Source of the DNA: a virus
Reading direction: 5' to 3' (one strand)
Length of the DNA stretch: 64,000 nt
Virus record (IMG/VR): IMGVR_UViG_3300032213_001813
Coordinates: 1-64,000 of that record
In this document: piece after piece, positions 18,133 to 46,705 of the stretch
How positions within the stretch are numbered: the stretch's first letter is position 1
Layout of the letters: each line of letters opens with the position of its first letter
Notes under the pieces: model-generated
The model's database searches: none
Told to the model about the DNA's origin: nothing
What the model saw: only the letters and a program-made list of their open reading frames with translations
Position numbers and translations under genes: made by a program

Positions 18133-21100
18133 ATGGAGTTCAACGGTAAAAGTCCTAATGGGTTAAATCAGTTAAGTGCAAGTTTAGTATCACTTTTTGT
18201 AAGTGGTGGAGCTGTAATTAATGTATCACCCCAATCGGTAAATGTTTTAACAGATATTACAGCATCTGGGGTTCAAACTTCGGAAATAAATCCATCTGTT
18301 GGTGGAACGTTATCCATTCAAGGAAATACAAAAATAACAGGTTCATTATTAGTATCATCATCAATTTCCGCATCTTCAGTAGTTGCAAATACTTTAGTTG
18401 GTGATGGTAGTGGAATAACAAATATACCAGCATCATCAATTGGTGATATTGATAGAATTAAATCAGGTTCAGTACAAACAATAATCTCACCAAACAAAGG
18501 GTTAGAAGTACAAACATCATTGACAGTAAAAGACTTTTTAGTTGTAACTGGTAGTGGTATTTTTAGAGGAGATTTGAGTGTAGCTGGTACAATTAATACA
18601 ACTGAATTAAAAGCAACTTATATATCTGCTTCAATTATTTTCGCAAGTGGAAGTAACAAATTTGGTGATAATGTAGTTGATAAGCATGAATTTACTGGAA
18701 GTGTTGGTATTAGTGGTTCAATATTTGTAACCGGAAATACAATTGCAACTGATATTACTACCGATGAGGTATTAGTATTAAACACAACCACAGGTAGAAT
18801 TGGTAGAAAGTTTGCAGCTGCATCTTCTGGTACTTCTGGAACAAGCGGTACATCTGGTACAACTGGTTCAAGCGGTACAACTGGTTCAAGCGGTACAACT
18901 GGTTCTGAAGGTACTTCTGGAACAAGTGGTACATCTGGTAGTGGGGGAACATCTGGTACTTCTGGTAGTGGGGGAACATCTGGTACTTCTGGAACAAGCG
19001 GTACATCTGGTACGTCTGGTTCTTCGGGAACAACTGGTTCTTCTGGTTCTTCTGGAACATCAGCAACAAGCGGTACATCTGGTTCGTCTGGAACAAGTGG
19101 AAGTGGTGGAACATCTGGAACAAGTGGAAGTGGTGGTTCTTCAGGTACTTCTGGTTCAAGCGGAAGTAGTGGTTCATCAGGTACAACTGGTTCATCAGGT
19201 ACAACTGGTTCATCAGGTACAACTGGTTCATCGGGTACAACGGGTTCATCGGGCACAACGGGTTCAAGTGGTATTTCTGGAACAAGTGGAACAAGTGGAA
19301 CATCAGGTACATCTGGAACTTCTGGAACAAGTGGTATAACTGGAGCTGGTGGTTCATCTGGTTCATCGGGTTCATCTGGAAGTAGTGGTAGTGGGGGAAC
19401 AACAGGTTCATCTGGTACATCTGGAAGTGGTGGTAGTGGTGGAACATCTGGAACATCAGGTACTTCTGGTTCAAGTGGTATAACTGGTGCCGGTGGTGGA
19501 GCTGGTACTGCTGGTAGTGGTGGTACATCTGGTTCATCTGGAACAAGCGGTACATCTGGAACAAGTGGTACATCGGGAACTTCTGGTGTAAGTGGTAGTA
19601 GTGGAACATCAGGTACATCTGGTTCAAGCGGAACAATGGGAACTGCTGGTAGTGGTGGTACATCTGGAACATCGGGTACTTCTGGTACAAGCGGTACTTC
19701 TGGTAGTTATGGTACATCTGGAACAAGTGGTAGTAGTGGAACTTCAGGAACAAGCGGTACTTCTGGTACTTCTGGTTCGGCTGGTGCAACTGGTTCTTCT
19801 GGTTCAGCTGGTACATCGGGAACTTCTGGAACATCTGGAGCATTATCTATTACTGGGACAACTGATAATGGTGTAATTACTCTTAATGGTTCATCTCCAA
19901 ACGTAACTGCGGAAGCTAATCTTACATTTGATGGTACTACATTAACGGTAACTGGAAACGAAACCCTTAGTGGTAACTTAACTGTTGGTGGTACAATCAG
20001 AGCACAACAAATATTTGTACAATACATTTCCGCATCTTTAATTTACGCATCTGGTTCAAACAAATTTGGTGATGCAACAAATGATAAGCAAGAATTTAGT
20101 GGAAGTGTTGATATTAGAGATTCATTAGCAATTCCAGCATTCGCAACAAACCCTGTTGGAACAAAAGCTGGACAAATATATTACAACACAGGTGATACAA
20201 ACATATATCGATACAATGGTACAACTTGGTTAGCAGCAGCTGGTACTTCTGGTTCTGGTGGTACTTCTGGTACTTCGGGTACAAGCGGTAGTAGTGGAAG
20301 TAGTGGTACTTCAGGTACAAGCGGAACATCTGGTACTTCTGGAACTTCTGGTGTAAGTGGTTCTGCTGGAAGTAGTGGTACTTCAGGTACAAGCGGAACT
20401 TCTGGAACATCTGGTACTTCTGGAACAAGCGGAACATCTGGTACTTCTGGAACAAGCGGTACTTCTGGTACTTCTGGTTCAAGCGGTACAATGGGAACGG
20501 CTGGTAGTGGTGGTTCATCTGGAAGTAGTGGTTCATCTGGAAGTAGTGGTTCATCTGGAAGTAGTGGTTCATCTGGAAGTAGTGGTGGAGCTGGCGTACC
20601 TGGTTCTCCCGGTACGCCGGGTGCATCTGGTTCATCGGGTTCTTCTGGAACTTCTGGAACTTCTGGAACAAGCGGTACAAGCGGAAGTAGTGGTTCATCT
20701 GGTAGTAGTGGTACATCTGGAACTTCTGGAACAAGCGGAACATCTGGAACGTCTGGTACATCGGGAACTTCTGGAACATCTGGTACATCGGGAACATCTG
20801 GTTCTTCTGGTTCATCTGGAACTTCAGGAGCAAATGCTGGTATTACCTCATTTACAAACCCTGCTGATAATAGAGTATTAACTGCGGTAAGTGCAAATAC
20901 AATTAATGCAGAAGCTAATTTAACATTTGATGGTAGTACATTGCTTGTTTCTGGAGATGTAACCGCAACCGCATATTATAACGCACAAGCAAGTAGTGGA
21001 TATAGATTAAGAAACGCAGGAAATACTGCAAACGTTGGTGGATTTACTCGTAGAGGATTATGGGAAGGTAATGCAAATTATGACCCAAGTTTGTGGGCTG

Positions 21101-24100
21101 AAACTGGATATAGTTTGTATTTTTATACAAATGGTAGTGCTACATCAAAAATGACTTTAGATACTGTTGGTAATCTTAGTTTATTAGGTACATTAACAGC
21201 AACTCAAGTTGATACTGGACAAGGTTTGACAGAAGTTCATCTAATGAACCAAAATATTCGTACAACTGATAATGTTATACATAATCAGGTGACTGCAAAC
21301 TCTGGTGGTAATGGTGGGGCATTTTATTTAAGTGATACTAATGCTGGATTGTATAGAGATAATACTTATGATGTAATTCTTTTACAAGCTAACTCATCTG
21401 GTAATCCACTTTATATGGCAGGTGCTGGTGAAGTTAGAGTAAGTATAGATTCAAATAATAACGAAACCGCACAAAAATTTATAGTAGGTAATAATGCAAT
21501 AAAATCAACAAACGAATTATTTTCAGTAAACGAAAGTGGTACGGCGTTTGCATCTTCTGATTTTAGAGCACCTATATTTTATGATTCTGCAAATCCTACA
21601 TACTATGTAGACCCAGCAACATATACCAATTTGTTTGGTGGATTCTTAATGAATGGTTCGCATGGTAGTACTTTAATTCAAAATTCACTACCTGCTGCAA
21701 ATAATGGTGGTGGTACTGGACTTGTTAGAATGAGTTGGTGGGTATCTGAACCTGGTGTAACTTACGATTGGGGTGGATTTGGATATAATGTATTAAATGA
21801 TGGTGGTTCTCCATCCGGATTTGGTAGAATAAATACTTCATTTGGACAAGCTTATATGAGATTTGGTACAAGTGGACAATTCTACTTCTATACTACTTCT
21901 ACTGGTGGTACTCGTTATACTCATATGTACTTAGCACCTAACAATGGAGTTGAGACATATGGTAGATTATATAATGATACTTATGTAGATGCACCACAAT
22001 TCCGTGATTCAAGCAATACTGCATATTTTTTAGACCCATTATCCGATTCAAATTTAAATACGGGTACAATGAACGGCCGTTGGAAATTCTCTAATTATTT
22101 GAGAAGTAACAATGCAGGTGGTTTAATGGGTGATTATGATACTAATAGTACTGCATCAAAAGTTATTTGGACGATTGGTGAAGCTTGGCCATTAGCTAAT
22201 ATGTACGGATTGGGTTATGAATACGGAAGTGGATATGACCATCATTTGGCATTAAGAAACAATGGTACAACTTACTCTCGTTTTGGATTTGCTGGTGCAG
22301 CATTTATAGGTGGTAACTTAACATTAGGTAATGATTTATACGCATATAGATTCTACGATAGAGATAATACTGCATACTATTGTGACCCGGCTGGAACATC
22401 CGTATTTACATATTTAACTATTGCAAACGGAAACTCTGTTCAGGCAAACGGATATAACAACAATGGTGGATTTGCAATGAATAACGCATCTACCTATTGG
22501 GGATTGGTGTGGAATTTTGCTGCAAACGATTGGAGATTAGGATATGGTTCAACTACCTCACAAGTTGGTTGGAATTTAAGATGGGATAATGGAAGTACGG
22601 CATTTGCACAAAACTTCCAAGCTAACATATATTACGATGCACAAAATACTGGATATTATGTAGACCCTAATTCGGGTACAACCTCATTAAGAACCGCAGG
22701 TGATTGGAGGTCAGATTCGGGAGCATGGTCTGGTGAATTTTCTGGTAAGATTCAATACCATAGTAGTAACTGGTATTTTCAATATGCAGGTCAATTCTTA
22801 TTTAGAAATAGTGGTGGTTCAAACGTAACTTATGGTGATACTTCAGGTAATCTATGGGCAGTTGCATCAATGCGTTCACCAATATTTTATGATGAAAACA
22901 ATACTGGATATTATTTAGATGCGGCTTCTGATAGAACTACAAACATCAATGGATTTAATTCAGATACTAACGCTAGACACGGTCATACCTACAAATACAA
23001 CTATTGGAGACCTTATATAACTGGAGATACTAACTATTGGACAGGACAAATGGGTTGGGGTACTACGGATATGAACACCGTAATGACATGGGGTAGTGGT
23101 TTTACTGATTCTTGGTCAAATCCGGCTAACCAACCATCTGGTACTTCTCACTGGGTAGGTGTTCAAACTTATCACTATGTAAATAGTTACAATAGTGGAT
23201 ATGGATGGCAATTAGTTGGTGGTCCAATAGGAAATTTAAGGTTTAGAAACTCTTGGCCAACTAATAGTGGTTGGGTAACTGTTGCAATGCATGACCGTAA
23301 CGATGGTAGTGGTGGTGGTTTATATGCAGGTGCATATTATGATGCAAATGATAGTGGTTACTATATGGACCCTAATTCGACTTCAAACGCAGCAATGAGA
23401 ATTAGAGGTGGTACTTTACATGGACCTAACCCTTCTTGGGGAGCATATATGTACGTTGGTTCAAATGGTAGACCGGGTGGTGAAGGTTCTGTTGTAGTAA
23501 CAAATGGTAACTTACACTTAGATTGCCAAAACGGATATGAAACTTATATCAACCATTATTCTGGTAATAGAACATATCTTTATGAAATAAGAACAAACTT
23601 TATTTACGATAGAGATAATACGGGATACTATTTAGACCCTAATGGTACATCATATCAAAACGTTGTGTATGGGGCTATATTCTATGACCACGACAGTACT
23701 TGGTATGGTGATTTTAATGGTAACTCTAGAATGAGCTCGGGTGATTTCTATTTTGCAGGATTCTCACATATGTATCGATTAGGTACACAAAATTCGTGGA
23801 ATGCATATGAAGGATTTGGTGTTTCAAACTCTGATAATGGGCAAAACGCAACATTTGAAGTAAACGTTTATGGTAATGGTGGTGACTGGAATTCTTGTGG
23901 TATGAATTCCAACGCTCGTAAATATGAGTGGTATTGTGGATACACCAAAATGATGGACTTGGATGAAGGTGGACACTTGAGAACTAGAGGTGCACAATGG
24001 GAATGGAATGGTTTCTCTGATGCAGATTTGAAAACCAACTTACAGGTTATTGATAATGCATTAGAAAAAATATCACAAATTAGTGGTTATACTTATGAAT

Positions 24101-24393
24101 TTACTGAAGATTCTCCATATAGAAACAATGATATTGAGGAAAGAACACATGGTGCTGGTTTAATTGCACAAGAAGTTGAAGCAGTATTACCTGTATTGGT
24201 TGATGAAGATTGGGTTGGTGGTGAATATAATAGATACTTCAAAACTCTTAACTACAATGGTGTACATGGTTTGACTGTTCAGGGTATTAAAGAATTAAAA
24301 GGATATCATGATACATTAGAAGATAGAGTTGCTGCATTGGAAAGTAGATTGGAGCAATTGGAAAGTAGAATACAAAATTTAGAAAATCAATAA
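18133..24393 (+). CDS. Second giant collagen-like fibre with S74 chaperone
   Basis: 2086 residues. The N-terminal 230 residues share the GSN-FGD-FTGSV cassette with the fibre at 6370, and the cassette recurs near residue 640. Two collagen-like Gly-X-Y blocks (about 232-570 and 705-900) flank it. Residues about 930-1950 contain repeats of the form YYDAQNTGYYVDPNS, interrupted by Trp/Tyr/Asn-rich beta segments likely to bind receptor or glycan. The C-terminus is a peptidase S74 intramolecular chaperone: SDADLKTN with candidate catalytic Ser1962 and Lys1967, then GLIAQEVEAVLP, and a final coiled coil rich in LESR/LEQ. Known S74 proteins trimerise and then cleave just before the Ser, which would release about 125 residues. 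Starts 17 bases after the previous gene. Confidence 0.85.
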   Translation: MEFNGKSPNGLNQLSASLVSLFVSGGAVINVSPQSVNVLTDITASGVQTSEINPSVGGTLSIQGNTKITGSLLVSSSISASSVVANTLVGDGSGITNIPASSIGDIDRIKSGSVQTIISPNKGLEVQTSLTVKDFLVVTGSGIFRGDLSVAGTINTTELKATYISASIIFASGSNKFGDNVVDKHEFTGSVGISGSIFVTGNTIATDITTDEVLVLNTTTGRIGRKFAAASSGTSGTSGTSGTTGSSGTTGSSGTTGSEGTSGTSGTSGSGGTSGTSGSGGTSGTSGTSGTSGTSGSSGTTGSSGSSGTSATSGTSGSSGTSGSGGTSGTSGSGGSSGTSGSSGSSGSSGTTGSSGTTGSSGTTGSSGTTGSSGTTGSSGISGTSGTSGTSGTSGTSGTSGITGAGGSSGSSGSSGSSGSGGTTGSSGTSGSGGSGGTSGTSGTSGSSGITGAGGGAGTAGSGGTSGSSGTSGTSGTSGTSGTSGVSGSSGTSGTSGSSGTMGTAGSGGTSGTSGTSGTSGTSGSYGTSGTSGSSGTSGTSGTSGTSGSAGATGSSGSAGTSGTSGTSGALSITGTTDNGVITLNGSSPNVTAEANLTFDGTTLTVTGNETLSGNLTVGGTIRAQQIFVQYISASLIYASGSNKFGDATNDKQEFSGSVDIRDSLAIPAFATNPVGTKAGQIYYNTGDTNIYRYNGTTWLAAAGTSGSGGTSGTSGTSGSSGSSGTSGTSGTSGTSGTSGVSGSAGSSGTSGTSGTSGTSGTSGTSGTSGTSGTSGTSGTSGSSGTMGTAGSGGSSGSSGSSGSSGSSGSSGSSGSSGGAGVPGSPGTPGASGSSGSSGTSGTSGTSGTSGSSGSSGSSGTSGTSGTSGTSGTSGTSGTSGTSGTSGTSGSSGSSGTSGANAGITSFTNPADNRVLTAVSANTINAEANLTFDGSTLLVSGDVTATAYYNAQASSGYRLRNAGNTANVGGFTRRGLWEGNANYDPSLWAETGYSLYFYTNGSATSKMTLDTVGNLSLLGTLTATQVDTGQGLTEVHLMNQNIRTTDNVIHNQVTANSGGNGGAFYLSDTNAGLYRDNTYDVILLQANSSGNPLYMAGAGEVRVSIDSNNNETAQKFIVGNNAIKSTNELFSVNESGTAFASSDFRAPIFYDSANPTYYVDPATYTNLFGGFLMNGSHGSTLIQNSLPAANNGGGTGLVRMSWWVSEPGVTYDWGGFGYNVLNDGGSPSGFGRINTSFGQAYMRFGTSGQFYFYTTSTGGTRYTHMYLAPNNGVETYGRLYNDTYVDAPQFRDSSNTAYFLDPLSDSNLNTGTMNGRWKFSNYLRSNNAGGLMGDYDTNSTASKVIWTIGEAWPLANMYGLGYEYGSGYDHHLALRNNGTTYSRFGFAGAAFIGGNLTLGNDLYAYRFYDRDNTAYYCDPAGTSVFTYLTIANGNSVQANGYNNNGGFAMNNASTYWGLVWNFAANDWRLGYGSTTSQVGWNLRWDNGSTAFAQNFQANIYYDAQNTGYYVDPNSGTTSLRTAGDWRSDSGAWSGEFSGKIQYHSSNWYFQYAGQFLFRNSGGSNVTYGDTSGNLWAVASMRSPIFYDENNTGYYLDAASDRTTNINGFNSDTNARHGHTYKYNYWRPYITGDTNYWTGQMGWGTTDMNTVMTWGSGFTDSWSNPANQPSGTSHWVGVQTYHYVNSYNSGYGWQLVGGPIGNLRFRNSWPTNSGWVTVAMHDRNDGSGGGLYAGAYYDANDSGYYMDPNSTSNAAMRIRGGTLHGPNPSWGAYMYVGSNGRPGGEGSVVVTNGNLHLDCQNGYETYINHYSGNRTYLYEIRTNFIYDRDNTGYYLDPNGTSYQNVVYGAIFYDHDSTWYGDFNGNSRMSSGDFYFAGFSHMYRLGTQNSWNAYEGFGVSNSDNGQNATFEVNVYGNGGDWNSCGMNSNARKYEWYCGYTKMMDLDEGGHLRTRGAQWEWNGFSDADLKTNLQVIDNALEKISQISGYTYEFTEDSPYRNNDIEERTHGAGLIAQEVEAVLPVLVDEDWVGGEYNRYFKTLNYNGVHGLTVQGIKELKGYHDTLEDRVAALESRLEQLESRIQNLENQ
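18826..19842 (+). repeat. Collagen-like coding repeat, block 1 of second fibre
   Basis: About 339 residues of GTS/GSS/GTT triplets. It contains an 18-base tandem repeat (GGTTCATCAGGTACAACT) at 19171-19260: five copies, the first three identical and the last two differing by a few bases. This arrangement is prone to length change by slippage or recombination. Confidence 0.85.
20245..20832 (+). repeat. Collagen-like coding repeat, block 2 of second fibre
   Basis: About 196 residues of Gly-X-Y triplets. At 20512-20583 the 18-base unit GGTTCATCTGGAAGTAGT is repeated four times without a mismatch. A short Pro-containing stretch (VPGSPGTPGAS) follows, the only proline-rich collagen-like segment I see. 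Confidence 0.85.
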
Positions 24394-37459: not shown

Positions 37460-37839
37460 GGGGATGACCGGCTTTTGACAGGTATGAAGACTGGTTGTAT
37501 TGATGCAAGTAAGGTTAGATGGAAACCTTTGAAGACCTATCAAACAATAAGTGCAGACGTAGAATTATCTACAATGACTTTCGGAGATGCTATGGCATGG
37601 ATGGAGTCTTTCGATTACGCAGTAGCTGCCTAATCAATCCCGTATCACTCATGGGATTTAAAAAGAAGTGAATGTTTAAGTTTACCGAAACTTTAAATCG
37701 GTTGGTGGAATCTGCTGAATTAACCATTCGGCCCCAATTCTTTTGGAGTGTTAGTAAGATAAAACACTATCCTAAACTTGTGAACGATTTACATTAGAAA
37801 CTTATCTGGACGCGGGTTCGAATCCCGCCATCTCCACCA
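37460..37839 (+). ncRNA. ssrA: Transfer-messenger RNA (tmRNA), one-piece
   Basis: 380 bases. The acceptor stem GGGGATG (37460-37466) pairs with CATCTCC (37829-37835), followed by A and an encoded CCA (37837-37839). The T arm is GCGGG-TTCGAAT-CCCGC (37812-37828). The 5' part (GACCGGCTTTTGACAGG) and the 3' part (TGGACGCGGGTTCGAATCCC) follow bacterial tmRNA consensus. The tag frame ends TCGATTACGCAGTAGCTGCCTAA, giving a C-terminal DYAVAA like the ClpXP degron of bacterial tags. From AATAAGTGCAGACG, like the E. coli TAGTCGCAAACG context, I place the resume codon at GCA 37553, so the tag is 26 residues (37553-37633 with stop). tmRNA with SmpB rescues stalled ribosomes and tags the nascent chain for degradation. 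Resume codon is inferred; identity is firm. Confidence 0.93.
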
Positions 37840-37840
37840 C

Positions 37841-37876
37841 TCCCACTTTTCCATTTGGATTTGTGGGATTTTTTTT
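37841..37876 (+). terminator. Intrinsic terminator of the tmRNA
   Basis: TCCCAC (37841-37846) pairs with GTGGGA (37863-37868), followed by eight Ts (37869-37876). It begins one base after the CCA end region. Its loop contains the -33 box of the next promoter. Confidence 0.75.
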
Positions 37877-37885
37877 GTATCTTTG
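37854..37885 (+). promoter_or_regulatory. Bacteroidota-type promoter nested in terminator
   Basis: TTTG 37854-37857 (in the terminator loop), 20-base spacer, TATCTTTG 37878-37885. The -7 box ends four bases before the ATG at 37890, predicting a leaderless message. Confidence 0.7.
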
Positions 37886-37889
37886 TAAA

Positions 37890-39176
37890 ATGAAAGTTAT
37901 AGAATCCGTAGAGGAAGTAAATTGGTTGAAAGCTAGGCTGGAAACCGAAATATCTATATGGTATCCACTATGGGTTGATAACTCAAAGCATCCTCTTCAC
38001 ACTAATCTTTCCCTTATACTGATACGATGTTTAGATGAGTTGTATGTTTTACCAATTCAACACGCAGATGCGCTTACAATCAAAGTATCGGATGTTAAAT
38101 CAATACTAAATACCAAGGGGAAGAAGTGGGTATTTCAAAAGAAGAAAATATTGCACTCTCTCCACATTTCGGTAAATCTATATGATGTAGATTCGGAATA
38201 CTTTATAAGGACAGGTGAGGTAATCGACTATGACGGGGCTTTAAATCCTCTCTTATCAACGCTAACTCATAAAGGGTATAGAGATAACTTAATACAATCA
38301 ATTCCTCTAATGAAGATTGTGGAAGTAATAGAACCACAATTCCTAAAATATCATTCCAATAATTCAGATTCTAATACATATCAATGGTACAATGAAACAT
38401 TCATACCTACACTTTCAGAAATGGAGGGATATGGGATTCGGGTCGATAGGAAAAAATTTACTGATAGATGGAATCAAGCTATTAGACATTTGACAGATGA
38501 TAGTAAAGTGTTTACGGAATACAATCCATTTACGGTAACAGGTAGACCATCAAATCGACATGGTGGTGTAAACTATGCCGCTCTCAATAAATCGGATGGT
38601 AGTAGGGAGTGTTTCGTTTCCGATGGGATATTCCTACAAATGGATTATAACGCATACCACCCACGACTAATTGGTAAGTTGATTAAGTTTGATATGCCGG
38701 ATGGGAATGTACATGAGTGGTTAGCCAAACAATATGGTTGTGATGTGAATGAGGGTAAGGGTATTACATTCCAATTATTATATGGGGGAATTGATGATAC
38801 GTTCCGTCAAATCCCATATCTAAACGCAGTGGCTGATTACATAGATGGATTATGGATTGAAACACAACAAAACGGATACCTACAAACCAAATATCGTAGA
38901 ATACCCCTAAGTTGGATAGAGGGTTCAAATCCACAAAAAGTATTTAACTATCTCCTACAAGCCTTAGAAACTGAAATGAACATTGATAAGATGAGGAAGA
39001 TATTGGATTATATTAAGGGTAGTGAAATCCGTTTTATCTTATATACTTATGATTCGTTCCTTTTTGATGTTCCTATGGATGTGGATAAGAATAAGATTAA
39101 GGATTTGAAAGAAATGATTGAAGAGGGTGGGTTTCCAATCAAAGCAAGTTGGGGTTTGGATTATGGAAAAGTGTAG
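37890..39176 (+). CDS. Family A (PolI-like) DNA polymerase with degenerate exonuclease
   Basis: 428 residues from ATG 37890; an in-frame GTG at 37863 lies inside the terminator and is rejected. The palm motifs of family A polymerases are present: TGRPSN-HGGVNYAAL (TGR-S...N), motif A LQMDYNAYHPRLIG (Asp retained), motif B GKGITFQLLYGG (the K-F-YG fingers motif), and motif C YTYDSFLFDVP, where HDE has become Y-D-S. The N-terminal 200 residues (IWYPLWVDNSKHPLHTNLS) look like a DEDD exonuclease that has lost DxE. Possible roles are repair, primer filling or lagging-strand work beside the family B replicase at 60764. Base composition is slightly less AT-rich than the baseplate genes. Catalytic competence is uncertain. 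Confidence 0.75.
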   Translation: MKVIESVEEVNWLKARLETEISIWYPLWVDNSKHPLHTNLSLILIRCLDELYVLPIQHADALTIKVSDVKSILNTKGKKWVFQKKKILHSLHISVNLYDVDSEYFIRTGEVIDYDGALNPLLSTLTHKGYRDNLIQSIPLMKIVEVIEPQFLKYHSNNSDSNTYQWYNETFIPTLSEMEGYGIRVDRKKFTDRWNQAIRHLTDDSKVFTEYNPFTVTGRPSNRHGGVNYAALNKSDGSRECFVSDGIFLQMDYNAYHPRLIGKLIKFDMPDGNVHEWLAKQYGCDVNEGKGITFQLLYGGIDDTFRQIPYLNAVADYIDGLWIETQQNGYLQTKYRRIPLSWIEGSNPQKVFNYLLQALETEMNIDKMRKILDYIKGSEIRFILYTYDSFLFDVPMDVDKNKIKDLKEMIEEGGFPIKASWGLDYGKV

Positions 39177-39217: not shown

Positions 39218-39847
39218 ATGAAAAAATTAGGTTTATCTCTATTGTTCTTATTTACTTTAATTGTTGTAAGAGCACAAGACATTGTAGTAATAAAACATAC
39301 AAATTACACAACACACTTTAGTAAATCAAAAAGATACCCAGTATTAGTACAATGGGAAACAACAAAAGCAATGGTAGGTTGTCCAACTCCCCTAAAAAGA
39401 AAGGATAACTTTAAGCCAGACCCACAATTGGTAGATGAAACTAATATTGCATTTTATTATGTAAAGAGTGGGTACGATAGAGGACACGTAATGCCGGCAG
39501 CAGATAATCTTTGCCAAACACAAGCGGTGCAGGATGAATGTTTCTACTTTAGTAATATGGTAGCACAAACACATAGATTGAATGCCGGAGATTGGAAATC
39601 ATTAGAAACTGCAACAAGAGATTGGGCATTAATTGCTTCAAAAGTAAGAGTATGGAGTGGTTCGGTTGGAGAACAAAAGAAAATAGGATTAGTATCAGTT
39701 CCTACTCAATGTTGGAAAGTAGTTCAGGTGGCAGGAAAGTGGCATGCATATTTATTCAACAATGATTTATCTAACCCAGATGGATTTCAAAATAACGAAG
39801 TACCTTTAGCACAAATAGAAAAATTGACTGGTTTCAAATTTAAGTAA
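39218..39847 (+). CDS. Secreted DNA/RNA non-specific endonuclease (DRGH family)
   Basis: 209 residues. An N-terminal signal peptide is clear: MKK, hydrophobic GLSLLFLFTLIVV, then RAQ with likely cleavage near residue 19-20. The catalytic block YDRGHVMPAADN carries the DRGH motif (87-90, general base His90), followed by FYFSNMVAQTHRLNAGDWKSLE with the Asn typical of the NUC1/EndA beta-beta-alpha-metal family. It should cut DNA and RNA in the periplasm or outside the cell. A secretion signal on a phage nuclease is unusual; possible roles are destroying competing phage DNA, thinning extracellular DNA at lysis, or recycling. Preceded by a late-type motif. Confidence 0.88.
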   Translation: MKKLGLSLLFLFTLIVVRAQDIVVIKHTNYTTHFSKSKRYPVLVQWETTKAMVGCPTPLKRKDNFKPDPQLVDETNIAFYYVKSGYDRGHVMPAADNLCQTQAVQDECFYFSNMVAQTHRLNAGDWKSLETATRDWALIASKVRVWSGSVGEQKKIGLVSVPTQCWKVVQVAGKWHAYLFNNDLSNPDGFQNNEVPLAQIEKLTGFKFK

Positions 39848-39850
39848 AAT

Positions 39851-40483
39851 ATGGCATATTTAAACCACAACATACCAACTACAAGATGTTTGATTAGAAA
39901 TGAGTTTCTTTTCAATCATACAAAAGGAAAAGGTGAATATACAAATTGTGATGTTCATAGTGTAGCTAGTATGGAGGGAATGACACCCGTATTTGAGGCA
40001 TTTTTGGAGAATGGTGTGAATTGGACAAGAAGACCCATACATGCATTTTGTTGGAAAAAAGATGCACCGGTATATCCACTAACGGAACACATTTATTGGG
40101 ATTGTTTTTCTAATTATTGTGATGTACAAATCCGAAATCGATTGAGTGGGTTGAAAGCAGAATTAATAAGCCCTAGTGGTACAAAAAGAGAGGGTACATA
40201 TATGTTTACATTAGATTGGGGATTTGAAAATAAAGCAGGTATGTTAGATGTATCATTTTCAGAGACATTTGAACATAAATGTGCACACATATTTAAAATG
40301 GATGATGGAAACTTTTTTGCATATCCAAACAATAGAATTATTTGGAAAGATAAAGCTTGGACATTTAACCAAATAAAAGAAAACCCTGGTTATATTATAG
40401 ACCATAACCTATATTCGGTAGAGGGTGAGGGTAAATTTGAAACCGATGATTCATATTTTACAGAGTTTAAAAATAAAAAATAA
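39851..40483 (+). CDS. Unknown late protein
   Basis: 210 residues, three bases after the nuclease stop, and the last base of its stop codon is the first base of the next ATG (TAATG). It is rich in Trp, Cys and aromatic residues (NCDVHSVASMEGMTPVFE, CWKKDAPVYPL, YWDCFSNYCDVQ). No signal peptide or known motif. Tight packing suggests coexpression with the nuclease and the large multidomain protein. Confidence 0.6.
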   Translation: MAYLNHNIPTTRCLIRNEFLFNHTKGKGEYTNCDVHSVASMEGMTPVFEAFLENGVNWTRRPIHAFCWKKDAPVYPLTEHIYWDCFSNYCDVQIRNRLSGLKAELISPSGTKREGTYMFTLDWGFENKAGMLDVSFSETFEHKCAHIFKMDDGNFFAYPNNRIIWKDKAWTFNQIKENPGYIIDHNLYSVEGEGKFETDDSYFTEFKNKK

Positions 40484-43400
40484 TGTCTTTAATTAACGAT
40501 ATAATAGAAAAGTGGGCTGATAGATTGGAAAATAGGGCGCCAAATCCCAATAATCCAACTCACATTAGCGAATTATCTTCCATACTAACCGAAATGGGAT
40601 TGAGTGAGATAAAAGATGAATTGATAGAAAACTTAACTGAAGCTGATAAACAATTCAGTAATCCTCTTTTAAATAAAGTAATTACTTATCAAAACGAAAA
40701 AGGAGAGCAAAAGAAAGCACCTATTGGAAATCTATTAAGATTAGCCGCTGACCATCCTGGTAGAAAGGCAGCTGAAGCAATGTTACCAAAAGATGGTACT
40801 CCTGAAAGAAAAGAATTAAACAAATCATTGGGTTCTGAAAAAGATGGTAGAAGTGTACCAACTGCTAATAATACTAAAAAAGGTGGTGAAGATAAACCAA
40901 AACCTACGGATGGTGGTGAAGATAAACCAAACGAAAAACCACAAACAAATCCAATGTTTACTAAAGATGCTGACCCAGCAATGGCGGCTAGAATAGATAC
41001 TGAAAAACAAACATTGGATAAACTTGCAAAAGCTGATAAGCCGGAACAATCTACGGAATTGGAACCTGTAAGTAGTGACCCTAATTCTAAAGCAAAGAAA
41101 TTTAAAGGAGAAACTTCTGGTAAAGATATTCAAACAATACCAATGGAAGGTGGTGGGCAGGTATATGGTACTGTTCATAGAAATAGAAAAATGGTTGATG
41201 ATATAATCAATCACATAAAAGCCACAATACCTGAAGAAAAATGGAAAGATATTGTATTTGTAGGTGAGGGTGGTTCAACTAATGATAGTGGAGAATTGGT
41301 ATTTTACGATGAAATGAAATATGCAGCTCCTAAATTCAAACAATTAGGTGCTGGTATTGATACTTGGGATGGTGATGAATTGGATGTGCATGATGACCAA
41401 TCTAAATTATACAAAAGACAGATAGAAAAAACAGGTTTTAACCAATCGCAGGTTAAAGCTGGAAACTGGGCAAGTATGATTGGGCAAGGTGAGGGTACTG
41501 ATACCATGTCTCCTAATGATTATTTAGATGATGAAGGTAAAAAGTTCTTACAAGATGAAGCAGTAAATGCTGGATTCCCACCAATAGAAAATTGGGATAA
41601 CCCAACGGATAAAGATATAGATACATTATATAGATTATCATTCCCAGAAGATTATGGTGATAAGGAAACAAAGATAAATGATATTCAAGTTGCTTTTAAT
41701 GAAATTAGAGATGAAAATCTTATAGAAAAAACAAAGCAATTACAATCACAAGGTAAAATACCGATTACAATAGCAGGTGAGAGTCATATTGAATTAGTGG
41801 ATAAAATGATGCAAAAATCAGAAAAACCGGATTCGGATTTCAAACCGGTAGAACCATCTGATGTAACTAAAGAAATACCAAAGGCAGATTCTGCTGCATT
41901 TAGTGGACAATCGGATATTGATAAAATAACAAAGCAGGAGAGAAAAGAAATCTCAATGAAAATCGATGAGTTAAATAAAATGACTCAAGATGCAATTGAA
42001 AAAGGTGAAAAAGCTCCAAACTATAACTTATGCCAAATAACTGTTCCTGGTACAAACTTATATTGTGATAACAATTTAGGAATACCAAGAGAGGATATGC
42101 CACAATTCAAAGGAAAACCACAACCCGGAACTCCGGCTGCGGATATGCCTGTTGATAAAAATGGTGAAGTAGATACCGAACCTCTATTCAAACAAATGTT
42201 GGCTGATAGAGGTGTTAAAGTATTAGATACTGAAATACCATCGGATTCCCTAAAAGCAACTCAATCAGAATTAGTTGGTTCGAAAGTGGCTGGAATGACG
42301 AAAGCATTAGAAAAAGACCCTAATCACCCAGCAATAACTGCACCAATTTATGTAAGTAGAGATGGGTATGTAGTAGATGGTCATCATCGTTGGGCAGCTG
42401 TAACTTCGGCAGCAATTAAAGCTGGAAAACCTACTGATATGAAAGTTAGGGTTATTGATATGGATGCAAAGGATATCATACCAATGGCTAACAAATTTGC
42501 GGAAGAGCAAGGTGTTGCTGCTAAAAAAGCAGATGCAAATCAAGAAGGACCTAAATCTGATATAGCTAGTGTACCAAAAGTAGAAGATGAAAAAGGTAAA
42601 ACCGCAAAAACTCCATCTGGTAAAAAATTATATAGTGTGGGTGGTGGTTATTATTCGGATAGACCGGATGGTGAACCTAAATTTATCAGAACTGAAGTAG
42701 TAGCTAGAAAAGCATTTTTGGAAGGCGATGAAAAGGCATATTTATTAATATTTGAAGCCGAATTTTCAGCAGATGTTGAAGGTGGTGAGTCTGGTAGATT
42801 TAAAGAAATACCTGAAAAAGATAGAAAAGATGCAGCTGAAGATTTAAAGGATACACAACCATCAACTGATACAACGGCTCAAAAACCAACCAAAAAAAGA
42901 GGTAAGAAAAATAAAGAATTAGACCAAACAAAAGATACAAAAAATGAATTTAATAATGGTAATCTATCAAAAGATGGTGTTACTGATGAACAATTTGGTG
43001 CTAATAAAAAAATAAAACCAACTCCAAATCAAATTAAAGTTGAACAAATTGAAAAATTCTTTTTAGATAAAAATGGAAATACAAAATTCCCTAAAAAATA
43101 TTTGAAAGTTTTAGCTAGAATGCTTAGTACAAAACCTGGTGGGGTAACTATATCTGATTTTACAGATGCGTCTGGAGCGGGTACATTATCATCAACAATG
43201 GGTGAACTACTTACATTGATGGCAGTTACTATTAAAGATGATAATGAGGCAAAAGAATTCTTTAATATGTTAAGACAGCATGTTAAATCAAATGGTAAAG
43301 ATTCAATTATTGATATTGGGTGGGTAAACTCAGCTGAAAAAGTTAGACAGACTCAATTTAATAGATATAATAGAAAATATGGAAAGGGTAATTGGGAATT

Positions 43401-44562
43401 AGATAATATGGCATGGGATGTTGAAAGTGAAGTTGATGCTATGGGTATGGAAAACTATAAACAAAATAAAGGATTCTCAACCGATGTTTATGCAAAAATT
43501 AAAGTTGGTGGAAAATACATATTAGATGAAATTTCACTTAAAAAAGAAATTAAAGCAAATTTATTGAATGCAACATCTGGTAGAGTTGCTGATATTATGG
43601 TGAGGGGATTGGCATCTGATGAAGATTTGGTAATATATGATGATTTAAACGCTAAAATAGACTCATTGATGGGACTAAAAGATGCCGCATCTAAAAGAGA
43701 AAAAGCAGAATTGGTAGCACAAAGAGATGCAATGGTTGAGAAATACAATGTTAATGTACCCGATGATGTTAAGGTATCTAATGTTCAAAAGAAGCAAAGA
43801 TTATTACATGAGGATTTTGTTAAAAAAGGAGTTAATGAAATTTCAGGGTTTTTAAATAAATTTTGTAATAAAACCGATAAGAAATATAGAGAAAATGCAG
43901 TAAATGTTATGACAACTACATTAAATCAAAAGCCTGATTATAAACCAAAAGTAACACAACAATTAGATACATTATGTTCGATAATGCCGACGGGTGGTTT
44001 CAAAACAGCTGAAGATTATAATAATGCATTAAAGGTAGCAAAAATTGGAGATACTTCGGATATGCAAAAATTAAATATGGCTTTTATGTCAGCAATTTCA
44101 TCAGAAAATCCACAATCTCAAGCTTCTAAATCACTTAATATGATTACTAAAAATTCTCATAATCACTCTAAGGCAGTTAGAAAATTTTTATTAGAAGACC
44201 CAGCTGCTAGAAGAGGATTGCTTGGTTCTATTAGAGAAGCATTTCCATTAAAAGCATTATTTGAGGGGGAAGAAAATATGATTTTAGGTGATGTTAGTGT
44301 TGATAGAGATGTATTAAAAGATGTTTTTGGAGTCGATTCATATGACCAATTGGAGCAAAAATTAACTGTAAGAGATACACCACCACCACCATCTATTGTT
44401 TATAGAGTTGCTGGTAATGAAGATATACCAGTTGCTGAAATAGTTTCTAGACCAGATGGTATTGGTTATGGTGGGAGTTGGAAACTTATTATGGCAGTAC
44501 ATCCTGATTTTGCTAAAAAATTAAAAGAATCAAATGAAAGATTAAACTCTAAAATTCAATAA
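40483..44562 (+). CDS. Large multidomain late protein (TraB-, ParB- and nuclease-like)
   Basis: 1359 residues. The N-terminal 130 residues look like a phage virion-protein start. Lys/Asp/Pro-rich linkers follow (near 130-225 and 800-860). Residues about 227-445 resemble the TraB/ChaN-EreA fold: GTVHRN, FVGEGG, and a closing ITIAGESHIELV. Residues about 575-670 resemble a ParB/sulfiredoxin fold: LKATQSE...PIYVSRDGYVVDGHHRWAAV. Residues about 1000-1022 (TDVYAKIK, then ILDEISLKKE) fit the D...E-x-(S)-x-K pattern of PD-(D/E)XK nucleases. The C-terminal 100 residues (EAFPLKALFEGEEN, then DGIGYGGSWKLIMAVHPDF) form another domain that I recall from T4-like phages. It may be a virion protein injected with DNA, or a maturation enzyme. 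Domain names are motif-level inferences. Confidence 0.6.
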   Translation: MSLINDIIEKWADRLENRAPNPNNPTHISELSSILTEMGLSEIKDELIENLTEADKQFSNPLLNKVITYQNEKGEQKKAPIGNLLRLAADHPGRKAAEAMLPKDGTPERKELNKSLGSEKDGRSVPTANNTKKGGEDKPKPTDGGEDKPNEKPQTNPMFTKDADPAMAARIDTEKQTLDKLAKADKPEQSTELEPVSSDPNSKAKKFKGETSGKDIQTIPMEGGGQVYGTVHRNRKMVDDIINHIKATIPEEKWKDIVFVGEGGSTNDSGELVFYDEMKYAAPKFKQLGAGIDTWDGDELDVHDDQSKLYKRQIEKTGFNQSQVKAGNWASMIGQGEGTDTMSPNDYLDDEGKKFLQDEAVNAGFPPIENWDNPTDKDIDTLYRLSFPEDYGDKETKINDIQVAFNEIRDENLIEKTKQLQSQGKIPITIAGESHIELVDKMMQKSEKPDSDFKPVEPSDVTKEIPKADSAAFSGQSDIDKITKQERKEISMKIDELNKMTQDAIEKGEKAPNYNLCQITVPGTNLYCDNNLGIPREDMPQFKGKPQPGTPAADMPVDKNGEVDTEPLFKQMLADRGVKVLDTEIPSDSLKATQSELVGSKVAGMTKALEKDPNHPAITAPIYVSRDGYVVDGHHRWAAVTSAAIKAGKPTDMKVRVIDMDAKDIIPMANKFAEEQGVAAKKADANQEGPKSDIASVPKVEDEKGKTAKTPSGKKLYSVGGGYYSDRPDGEPKFIRTEVVARKAFLEGDEKAYLLIFEAEFSADVEGGESGRFKEIPEKDRKDAAEDLKDTQPSTDTTAQKPTKKRGKKNKELDQTKDTKNEFNNGNLSKDGVTDEQFGANKKIKPTPNQIKVEQIEKFFLDKNGNTKFPKKYLKVLARMLSTKPGGVTISDFTDASGAGTLSSTMGELLTLMAVTIKDDNEAKEFFNMLRQHVKSNGKDSIIDIGWVNSAEKVRQTQFNRYNRKYGKGNWELDNMAWDVESEVDAMGMENYKQNKGFSTDVYAKIKVGGKYILDEISLKKEIKANLLNATSGRVADIMVRGLASDEDLVIYDDLNAKIDSLMGLKDAASKREKAELVAQRDAMVEKYNVNVPDDVKVSNVQKKQRLLHEDFVKKGVNEISGFLNKFCNKTDKKYRENAVNVMTTTLNQKPDYKPKVTQQLDTLCSIMPTGGFKTAEDYNNALKVAKIGDTSDMQKLNMAFMSAISSENPQSQASKSLNMITKNSHNHSKAVRKFLLEDPAARRGLLGSIREAFPLKALFEGEENMILGDVSVDRDVLKDVFGVDSYDQLEQKLTVRDTPPPPSIVYRVAGNEDIPVAEIVSRPDGIGYGGSWKLIMAVHPDFAKKLKESNERLNSKIQ

Positions 44563-45063: not shown

Positions 45064-45834
45064 ATGTACAAAGTTAGGGGATACATCAAACCGGAAAATG
45101 CATTCCACACAATTGAAGAGTGGGAGATGATTTGCTACGAATTTTTGGGTTTGGAGCAAAAAGGATTTGATACAAGAGGTGGACAAATTGATTATAGTCC
45201 TCAATTGATAGATTTAATAAATAAACACTTCTCGTACCAACTATATATCGAAACTCAACAATTTCCAGACCAAACTCGTAAAAAGGTATTGGATTTTATT
45301 GAAGATTTTGTAAATCATAGAGTTTGGTCTTTAAGAAAAGAATATAAAGATTATTTAGTTAATATAGATAATGATAAAATTGCGTTCTTTTATTCAAGAG
45401 GTGCAACCGAACCATATCTATTATTAGATAAGCAATTTACGATGGATACTTATGGTACTACTGATGAAGAAGTAACAGTATTACATTGGACTTCAAAAGA
45501 AGGTTTGATTAATTTAGCGGATAGTGTTAAGAATGGATATAAATTTTCAGTATCAACATTTACAACACAAGCTAAAGACTTTTTTAGACCGGAGAGTAAT
45601 ATATTAGTAAAATTAAAAGGAACATTAGTAGCAGCATTCAAATCAGATGCTAAAACCTTTGCAACCGATAGAGGAAACAAAGCAGTTAATATGTTTAGGT
45701 TATCGTATCCTGGTAATGAAAGTAATCTTTGCCGTAACATAGAGGATTGTAAAGATAATAAAACAGCCCTATGGAATGAAATAGTTATAGTACCAAATGA
45801 AATTTTGGAATACAAAGAAATTAAAAAATATTAA
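45064..45834 (+). CDS. Unknown late protein with weak ADP-ribosyltransferase-like C-terminus
   Basis: 256 residues. The C-terminal half has LHWTSKEGLINLADSV (a His in a strand followed by a helix), a SVSTFTTQ segment and a final ALWNEIVIVPNEILEYKEI. That order resembles the His...Ser/Thr...Glu layout of ADP-ribosyltransferase folds, where the NEIV glutamate would be catalytic. The resemblance is weak and could be fortuitous. The N-terminal half is helical and charged. The next start (45839) lies four bases after its stop, so it is probably coexpressed with the endolysin. Confidence 0.5.
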   Translation: MYKVRGYIKPENAFHTIEEWEMICYEFLGLEQKGFDTRGGQIDYSPQLIDLINKHFSYQLYIETQQFPDQTRKKVLDFIEDFVNHRVWSLRKEYKDYLVNIDNDKIAFFYSRGATEPYLLLDKQFTMDTYGTTDEEVTVLHWTSKEGLINLADSVKNGYKFSVSTFTTQAKDFFRPESNILVKLKGTLVAAFKSDAKTFATDRGNKAVNMFRLSYPGNESNLCRNIEDCKDNKTALWNEIVIVPNEILEYKEIKKY

Positions 45835-45838
45835 AACT

Positions 45839-46705
45839 ATGTTATTGAAAAGAGGAGATAATAACGAAGATGTAAAAAAATTACAAACCAAATTGGGATT
45901 AGAACCAATTGGTAATTTTGGCCCGAAAACGGAAGATGCTGTAAAAGCATGGCAAGCAAAGAATGGTTTAACTGCCGATGGCATTGTTGGACCTAATACT
46001 TGGAACAAAATTATGGGAGTTACCCAAGTTCCAAAACCAGTAGCACAACCAACCGCACCTGCACCACAACCTGTTGCATCTGCACCTGTTGCAAGTGTAG
46101 CTGGATTGAATTTAGCAAAATTAAAAGGACATATTCCTGATGCAGTAATTGCAATGATACCCGATACCGCTGCAAAGTTTGGTATCAATACACCATTACG
46201 ATTGGCACACTTCTTAGCACAATGTGGACACGAAAGTGGAGGATTTAGAGCAACGCAAGAAAACCTAAACTATTCTGCGAAAGGTTTGATGGGTATATTC
46301 AAAAAGTATTTCCCAACTTCAGCATTAGCAGCAGCTTACGAAAGAAAGCCGGAAAAGATTGCAAATAGAGTATATGGTGGTAGAATGGGTAATGGAGCAG
46401 AAGCAAGTGGTGAGGGTTACAAATTCAGAGGAAGAGGATACATCCAATTGACAGGAAAAGAAAACTATACTGCATTTGGTAAATCAATAGGTGAAGATAT
46501 GACAGTGAATCAAGATAAAGTAGCAGGACCATATGCATTATTATCAGCAGCTTGGTTCTTTTCTAAAAACGGATTACATAGAATAGCAGATGAGGGAAGT
46601 TCAGATGCAGTTGTAACAAAAATTACTAAAAGAGTAAACGGGGGTACAATTGGTTTGGCAGACAGAATCAAACATTTCAAAGAGTACTATCACTTATTAG
46701 CATAA
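45839..46705 (+). CDS. Endolysin: peptidoglycan-binding domain plus GH19-type hydrolase
   Basis: 288 residues from ATG 45839, four bases after the previous stop; an earlier in-frame ATG at 45797 would add 14 residues overlapping that gene. Residues 1-60 are a peptidoglycan-binding domain (LLKRGDNNEDVKKLQTKLG, GPKTEDAVKAWQ, DGIVGPNTWNKI). An Ala/Pro linker follows. Residues about 85-285 are a GH19/chitinase-type muramidase: LAHFLAQCGHESGGF with a candidate catalytic Glu, then QENLNYSAKGL, and YKFRGRGYIQLTGKENY. It degrades the cell wall at lysis. No signal peptide, so release would need a holin, which I do not see nearby. Ends at a strong terminator. Confidence 0.92.
   Translation: MLLKRGDNNEDVKKLQTKLGLEPIGNFGPKTEDAVKAWQAKNGLTADGIVGPNTWNKIMGVTQVPKPVAQPTAPAPQPVASAPVASVAGLNLAKLKGHIPDAVIAMIPDTAAKFGINTPLRLAHFLAQCGHESGGFRATQENLNYSAKGLMGIFKKYFPTSALAAAYERKPEKIANRVYGGRMGNGAEASGEGYKFRGRGYIQLTGKENYTAFGKSIGEDMTVNQDKVAGPYALLSAAWFFSKNGLHRIADEGSSDAVVTKITKRVNGGTIGLADRIKHFKEYYHLLA

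What the first reader, a model, noticed from the sequence alone, without database searches (positions are those of the whole stretch)
40483..44562. Giant late protein joining TraB-like, ParB-like and nuclease-like segments
One 1359-residue chain shows GTVH...GEGG...GESH (TraB/ChaN-like), DGHHRWAAV (ParB/sulfiredoxin-like) and D...E-x-S-x-K (nuclease-like), with charged linkers, like a multi-effector protein. It is coexpressed with a secreted nuclease and lies before the lysis gene. It could be injected with the genome to attack host DNA or signalling. This is my strongest candidate for an undescribed system.
Basis: inference. Interest (0 to 1): 0.75.

Follow-up and report, generated by a model that had tools for sequence, protein, structure and literature searches.

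The report
Shuffled multi-domain phage cargo protein
A large protein of an uncultured T4-like virus of (probably) Bacteroidota joins several unrelated enzyme-like modules behind an N-terminal segment that looks like the removable tag T4 uses to load proteins into its head, and relatives shuffle and swap these modules, so it is probably a toolkit injected into the host with the viral DNA.

Summary
The 1359-aa ORF is real: about 94% and 85% identical to two other contigs over residues 1-805, dN/dS about 0.2. It is modular: an N-terminal ~53-aa segment (Nt), a small 'GNLLR' spacer, a GTVH...GEGG...GESH module, a ParB/Srx module (DGHHR), a small GGGYYS module and a PD-(D/E)xK-like C-terminal region. 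Relatives in IMG/VR permute, lose and swap these modules. Two close relatives carry an unrelated C-terminal cassette between conserved flanks. Nt is always N-terminal and ends in [LI]xE in 24/24 diverse sequences. In two relatives a short header (MI[RK]L..L[LI].E) replaces Nt exactly at that site. T4 head propeptides look alike (gp24 MAKINELLRE, IPII/III MKTYQEFIAE, gp23 SFLTE|A), and short-header proteins lie beside gp21-gp22 in relatives. Best explanation: a T4-internal-protein-style, protease-processed polyvalent cargo injected into the host. Packaging and activity are inferred. The TraB/TIKI signature is complete, but profile and fold searches do not confirm it; Cnuc also lacks a fold match. 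Nt, GTVH and Cnuc have no significant Pfam, PDB or PHROG match, and GTVH and an Nt-Cnuc relative have none in phage isolates. New variant of a known kind.

The parts
40483..44562 (+). whole gene, 1359 aa modular protein
   Evidence: dN/dS 0.18-0.20
40483..40641 (+). Nt segment, residues 1-53; putative propeptide / head-targeting segment ending in LTE53|A54
   Evidence: Nt always N-terminal in its hits; 24/24 sequences under 80% identical have [LI]xE in the window after Nt, shuffle mean 11.5, max 19; swapped for a short header at this site in L267 and L002
40651..40791 (+). GNLLR/GRKAAE spacer module, residues 57-103
   Evidence: shared with L267:8652-9797 and L002:14365-15510, which have a short header instead of Nt
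41065..41829 (+). GTVH module, residues 195-449; TIKI/TraB-like signature H232, E262, R409, H435
   Evidence: 78 loci, alignment A4, AF2 pLDDT 93.8, signature test; no PDB fold match
41911..42579 (+). ParB/Srx module, residues 477-699, DGHHRW at 632-637
   Evidence: phrog_2859 7e-20 and ParB-like phrog_1033 7.6e-4; alignment A6; homologous segment in giant proteins of Pseudomonas and Klebsiella phages
42685..42882 (+). small GGGYYS...FIRTE module, residues 735-800
   Evidence: recurs in relatives
43078..44559 (+). C-terminal PD-(D/E)xK-like module (Cnuc), residues 866-1359; E908, D1001, S1018-L-K1020
   Evidence: 63 loci, many with Nt at the N-terminus; invariant residues; AF2 pLDDT 89.8; replaced by unrelated cassettes in L001 and L002
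39182..39191 (+). TATATTTATA, candidate late promoter of the operon
39218..39847 (+). secreted DNA/RNA non-specific endonuclease, first gene of the apparent operon
   Evidence: PF01223 8.3e-35
39851..40483 (+). phrog_3704-family protein, stop codon overlaps the start of the 1359-aa gene
   Evidence: (3.5e-44), sequence
45797..46705 (+). endolysin (PG-binding + GH19)

Best explanation
The gene encodes a modular cargo protein made late in infection. Its first ~53 residues act as a propeptide that directs it into the prohead and is cut off by the phage's T4-type prohead protease after LTE53. The mature protein is injected with the genome and acts on the host through independent modules: a TIKI/TraB-like hydrolase, a ParB/Srx-type nucleotidase/nuclease and a PD-(D/E)xK-like nuclease. 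Shown: modularity, shuffling, C-terminal cassette swapping, conservation, the [LI]xE site and its exchange with a short header, short-header genes beside the protease and scaffold genes in relatives, and a shared upstream motif. Inferred: packaging, cleavage, injection, and the activity of each module.
For: Modules recur separately, permuted and swapped; relatives add CTP_transf_like, HD and DUF5661 domains. Nt ends in [LI]xE in 24/24 diverse sequences. In L267 and L002 a short header replaces Nt exactly at this site on the same spacer. Short headers M[IKR][KR]L..LL.E start 47 of 1376 distinct ORFs but 0 of 7261 internal Met positions, and head a protein beside gp21 and gp22 in L196-L199. T4's own head proteins have similar N-termini: gp24 MAKINELLRE|S, IPII/III MKTYQEFIAE|A, gp23 SFLTE|AE; T4 CTS/propeptides are described in PMC5694885 and PMC3012670. 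Large relatives encode gp21 (9/14) and gp23 (10/14). The ParB module lies in giant proteins, annotated 'structural protein' or PLxRFG, of Pseudomonas phage Epa33 and Klebsiella phage ZX1. The TATATTTATA motif is shared with tail genes.
Against: No proteomics. The window's own record, a linear fragment, shows neither gp21 nor gp23, so its protease is not seen. Cleavage in these phages is argued by analogy with T4. Some family members carry other N-termini (44 of 136), though many of these also show a short helix ending in LxE or LLE. GTVH and Cnuc have no confident fold match.
Confidence: 0.62

Rival explanations
1. A late, non-packaged intracellular enzyme complex: made in the infected cell to degrade host or competitor DNA or remodel the cell before lysis. 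Nt would be a protein-interaction or DNA-binding segment (weak SAP-like match), not a head signal.
For: Same apparent operon as a secreted nuclease, close to the endolysin; a SAP model hits the L004 N-terminus at E 0.0099; no virion data.
Against: Nt is exchanged for a T4-propeptide-like header exactly at an [LI]xE site; short-header genes lie in the prohead core cluster of relatives; in T4 the internal-protein genes also flank the lysozyme gene, so the position does not argue against packaging.
Confidence: 0.22
2. A structural part of the particle: a scaffold/core or tail-associated protein whose enzyme-like modules serve assembly or DNA entry, with no effector role.
For: Late gene order next to tail genes; homologous ParB segment in giant 'structural' proteins; membrane-like modules in relatives.
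Against: Extreme module shuffling, loss and C-terminal swapping between close relatives is not typical of an assembly part; the gene is reduced to ~320 aa (header + ParB) in many phages; invariant catalytic-type residues are kept.
Confidence: 0.12
3. An unordered fusion with no common role: neighbouring morons joined by recombination, Nt being only a frequent recombination partner.
For: High recombination in the locus; modules found as separate ORFs.
Against: Purifying selection on each module (dN/dS 0.09-0.20); Nt always at the N-terminus and followed by a conserved spacer; recurring combinations across many contigs.
Confidence: 0.04

Closest known systems
Polyvalent proteins of phages and conjugative elements (Iyer et al. 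2017, PMC5512222)
   Same: Large late-gene proteins combining unrelated enzyme domains, including ParB/Srx-type domains; proposed to be injected with the DNA; extensive domain shuffling.
   Different: No Pfam match to the DdrB-like ParB or other domains of that network; modules GTVH, Cnuc and Nt are not in Pfam or PHROGs; a T4-type propeptide rather than a zincin peptidase would do the processing; 'TraB' does not occur in that paper's text.
T4 internal head proteins IPI-III and Alt with a capsid targeting sequence (PMC3012670, PMC9958956)
   Same: N-terminal propeptide ending in an [LI]-x-E-type site, variable cargo behind a common tag, gene near the lysozyme gene.
   Different: T4 CTS is ~10 residues; Nt is ~53 residues and the cargo is a 1300-aa multi-domain chain. 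Packaging is not demonstrated here.
P1 DarB/DdrB defence-against-restriction proteins (PMC9024508)
   Same: Very large head-packaged, injected proteins with an N-terminal targeting segment (first 30 residues of DarB suffice).
   Different: Different domains, and no shared N-terminal consensus among Dar proteins according to that paper.
PLxRFG giant virion proteins (Pseudomonas phage H66/Epa33, Klebsiella phage ZX1)
   Same: Carry a homologous ParB segment, about 32% identity over ~110-140 residues.
   Different: 3800-aa proteins of other phages, no Nt, GTVH or Cnuc detected there.
TIKI/TraB/ChaN/Ere hydrolase superfamily (PMC6254334)
   Same: GX2H - E - R - GX2H residues in the same order and spacing.
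   Different: No significant profile-profile or PDB fold match.

Membership tests
Polyvalent proteins (Iyer 2017) | two or more disparate domains in one polypeptide | tested here: met
   ParB/Srx plus GTVH plus Cnuc modules; relatives also CTP_transf_like 5.6e-8 and HD 1.1e-6
Polyvalent proteins (Iyer 2017) | late or virion gene context in a phage | tested here: met
   tail sheath, tube and hub genes upstream, endolysin downstream, shared upstream motif
Polyvalent proteins (Iyer 2017) | domains drawn from the described network (DdrB-ParB, MPTase, ArdC, ART ...) | tested here: inconclusive
   a ParB-like domain is present but no Pfam model of that network matched
Polyvalent proteins (Iyer 2017) | delivered into the host with the DNA | not testable with these tools
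   needs virion proteomics or an injection assay
T4-type CTS-tagged internal head proteins | N-terminal propeptide ending in a gp21-type [LI]xE site | tested here: met
   sequence level only:
T4-type CTS-tagged internal head proteins | cognate gp21 prohead protease encoded | tested here: inconclusive
   absent from the window's incomplete record, present in 9 of 14 records searched, including the L004 relative
T4-type CTS-tagged internal head proteins | found cleaved inside virions | not testable with these tools
   no isolate or proteome found
TIKI/TraB/ChaN superfamily (GTVH module) | 2 x GX2H, Glu and Arg in order | tested here: met
   34/39 members match, 0/902 other ORFs, 0/3900 shuffles
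TIKI/TraB/ChaN superfamily (GTVH module) | profile similarity to the family | tested here: inconclusive
   PF01963 best E 0.044 and 0.16 at matching ends; hhalign probability about 1%, no better than controls
TIKI/TraB/ChaN superfamily (GTVH module) | shared fold with solved members | tested here: not met
   AF2 model pLDDT 93.8, no PDB match with E <= 0.001; so it is not filed as a member
ParB/Srx superfamily | DGHHR-type active-site segment and profile match | tested here: met
   PHROG ParB-like 7.6e-4 and phrog_2859 7e-20; invariant DGHHRW; the weak best PDB match is free serine kinase of this superfamily, E 0.13
PD-(D/E)xK nucleases (Cnuc) | E ... D ... (E/Q/S)xK in alpha-beta-beta-beta order | tested here: met
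   invariant E43, D136, S153-L-K155; predicted helix 37-49, strands 106-113, 137-143, 146-155
PD-(D/E)xK nucleases (Cnuc) | fold match to a solved nuclease | tested here: not met
   no PDB match with E <= 0.001; not filed as a member

The most novel reading that the evidence does not exclude
Uncultured T4-like phages run a plug-in cargo system: two interchangeable, protease-removable head-targeting tags (a ~10-residue header and a ~53-residue Nt segment ending at the same kind of [LI]xE site) carry a large, freely recombining set of enzyme modules, including a new TIKI-like hydrolase domain and swappable nuclease-like C-termini, into the host with the genome, much as polymorphic toxins use a constant delivery part with variable ends.
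Probability: 0.45. Interest if true: 0.8.

Novelty: new variant of a known kind. Interest (0 to 1): 0.62.

Why it matters
Which proteins a phage injects is hard to read from sequence. If the [LI]xE-terminated headers are real head-targeting tags, injected cargo could be listed directly in thousands of uncultured T4-like genomes, and each module (including ones unknown to Pfam and PHROGs) becomes a testable candidate for counter-defence or host takeover. The swapping of a whole C-terminal module between near-identical phages suggests strong selection on what is delivered. The tag claim can be tested with a fluorescent reporter and one protease gene.

Tried and rejected
Pfam, PHROGs and PDB sequence searches with the whole protein and with modules: only the ParB part matched. 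tblastn of GTVH and of an Nt-Cnuc protein in 50,697 phage records: no match. Scan of 84,980 cellular genomes with GTVH: no relative. HrcA, T6PP_C, CbiK and similar weak Pfam hits judged chance: scattered and below cut-off. Histidine-phosphatase-like PDB and BFVD hits of the GTVH model rejected (TM about 0.3); the one BFVD hit, an Edafosvirus protein (E 1.2e-4, TM 0.53), is uncharacterised. hhalign of GTVH against a TraB alignment: no better than controls. The PD-(D/E)xK motif in further Nt-headed proteins: 4 of 10 against 44 of 413 background ORFs, suggestive only. T4-type TATAAATA is not enriched upstream of genes; its reverse complement TATTTATA is.

Full report
Observation. Window 40483-44562 (+) holds a single 1359-codon frame in a 188 kb linear virus record. 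The start overlaps the upstream stop by one base. Two other IMG/VR contigs encode it with about 94% and 85% identity over residues 1-805, with dN/dS 0.20 and 0.18 overall and 0.09-0.20 within the Nt, GTVH and ParB parts.

Modular anatomy. BLAST and iterative HMM searches against all ORFs in fetched loci show that the chain is built of separable pieces: Nt (1-53), GNLLR spacer (57-103), GTVH (195-449), ParB (477-699), a GGGYYS/FIRTE piece (735-800) and Cnuc (866-1359). Relatives have ParB before GTVH, lack GTVH, carry only header + ParB (~320 aa), carry Nt + Cnuc alone (~600 aa), or end in other cassettes. Two contigs match the window gene at 95% and 87% DNA identity up to about residue 788, then have no DNA match to the C-terminal part, then match again at 97% and 93% downstream. 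Their C-termini are related to each other but not to Cnuc. That is a C-terminal cassette swap between conserved flanks. Other members add cytidylyltransferase-like, HD and DUF5661 domains.

Nt and the cleavage-site argument. Nt is N-terminal in all its hits and occurs at most twice per record searched. In 24 of 24 sequences under 80% identical, the stretch after Nt contains [LI]xE, while shuffles average 11.5 with a maximum of 19; the alignment puts it at one position in nearly all, followed by a variable linker. These sequences are related, so the shuffle number is a guide and not a probability. In L267:8652-9797 and L002:14365-15510 the same spacer is preceded not by Nt but by the short headers MIRLSNLITE|ADEKQF and MIKLTNLLDE|ANTDP, and the join falls exactly at the [LI]xE site. 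Short headers of this form begin 47 of 1376 distinct ORFs and none of 7261 internal methionines (the ORFs include related sequences). In relatives L196-L199 such a header begins a protein lying with gp21 (protease), gp22 (scaffold) and gp23, and the MCP N-terminal region there reads QLLDE|A or QLLDE|T. T4 read from its record shows gp24 MAKINELLRE, IPII and IPIII MKTYQEFIAE and gp23 SFLTE|AE. The literature describes T4 gp24/IP propeptides as 10-20-residue capsid targeting sequences removed by the prohead protease (PMC5694885) and internal proteins as diverse defence proteins sharing only that sequence (PMC3012670). P1 DarB likewise carries a targeting segment within its first 30 residues (PMC9024508). 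Large relatives encode the gp21 (9 of 14) and gp23 (10 of 14) families; the window's own incomplete record does not show them.

GTVH module. An AF2 model has pLDDT 93.8, but Foldseek against the PDB finds nothing significant; against viral models there is one uncharacterised giant-virus protein. (i) The TIKI/TraB signature (two GX2H, Glu, Arg; the TIKI active site is described in PMC6254334) is present in order and spacing in 34 of 39 members, 0 of 902 other ORFs and 0 of 3900 shuffles; the pattern also recognises 5 of 9 TraB reference proteins. The pattern was written after seeing the motif, so the count shows that it is not a chance arrangement, not that the family is TraB. (ii) Pfam TraB gives only E 0.044 and 0.16, but at collinear ends. 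(iii) hhalign against YbaP plus eight plasmid-borne TraB proteins gives about 1% probability, like controls. It works plausibly like a TIKI-type hydrolase; membership is not established.

ParB and Cnuc modules. The ParB module matches phrog_2859 (7e-20) and ParB-like PHROGs. It is homologous to a segment in 387 phage records, including a standalone 149-aa protein of Salmonella phage SFP10 and 3800-aa giant proteins annotated as structural or PLxRFG. Its weak best PDB match is free serine kinase, a ParB/Srx-fold enzyme. Iyer et al. [quoted passage not shown] Cnuc has invariant E43, D136 and S153-L-K155 with a helix-strand-strand-strand order expected of PD-(D/E)xK enzymes, but no PDB fold match.

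Expression and context. TATTTATA occurs 32 times on the + strand of the record, 19 of them within 80 nt upstream of + ORFs, where 6% of positions qualify. These include tail sheath, tail tube, baseplate hub, the nuclease gene that starts this operon, and the MIKL-header cluster near 95.8 kb. This supports late expression of the operon. Tail, recombinase, helicase and ssDNA-binding genes agree with a T4-like myovirus; the Bacteroidota host is my inference from signal peptides and a TonB-receptor-like gene, not a test. In T4 the internal-protein genes ipII and ipIII also sit beside the lysozyme gene.

Conclusion. The protein works like a polyvalent injected protein delivered by a T4-style internal-protein route. 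It is a new variant rather than a new kind: the delivery idea, the ParB domain and multi-domain injected proteins are known, whereas the Nt segment, GTVH and Cnuc modules and the interchange of headers at the cleavage site were not found in the libraries searched here. Packaging, cleavage, injection and enzyme activity remain to be shown.

Noticed in passing
window 37460-37839: A phage-encoded tmRNA (Rfam RF00023, 100 bits) with an unusually long predicted tag of 26 residues ending AVAA.
   Followed up: partly
G000 record; window 6323, 6343, 17416, 24782, 25288, 27679, 28288, 29310, 39184, 46862: TATATTTATA motif upstream of late genes (19 of 32 TATTTATA sites within 80 nt upstream of + ORFs; 6% of positions qualify): candidate late promoter, the reverse complement of the T4 late promoter octamer.
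   Followed up: partly
G000:C1:133381-136247 and 140675-143593 (outside window): Four tryptophan-halogenase-family genes (PF04820, E 1e-95 to 5e-119) in one phage record.
   Followed up: partly
G000:C1:170583-173843 (-), also L010:652-3921: Phage-encoded TonB-dependent-receptor-like protein of about 1090 aa (PF00593 8.5e-8 in G000), on the opposite strand to most genes.
   Followed up: partly
G000:C1:95787-98462 and 168790-169542 (outside window): Small genes starting MIKL..LLxE or similar, candidate further head cargo of the same phage.
   Followed up: partly
L067:2480-7735, L102:2507-5929, L061:2612-6691: GTVH-module proteins starting with a helix ending in LLEE, LLED or similar, then a cytidylyltransferase-like (NMNAT-type) domain; L067 also has an HD domain. 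Could act on NAD or nucleotides.
   Followed up: no
window 6370-16047 and 18133-24393: Very large repetitive tail-fibre-like genes with long antisense open frames, probably a by-product of repeat composition.
   Followed up: no
window 37863-39176: DNA polymerase-like gene (phrog_17, 428 aa, matches only the C-terminal part of the profile) between the tmRNA and the nuclease gene.
   Followed up: no
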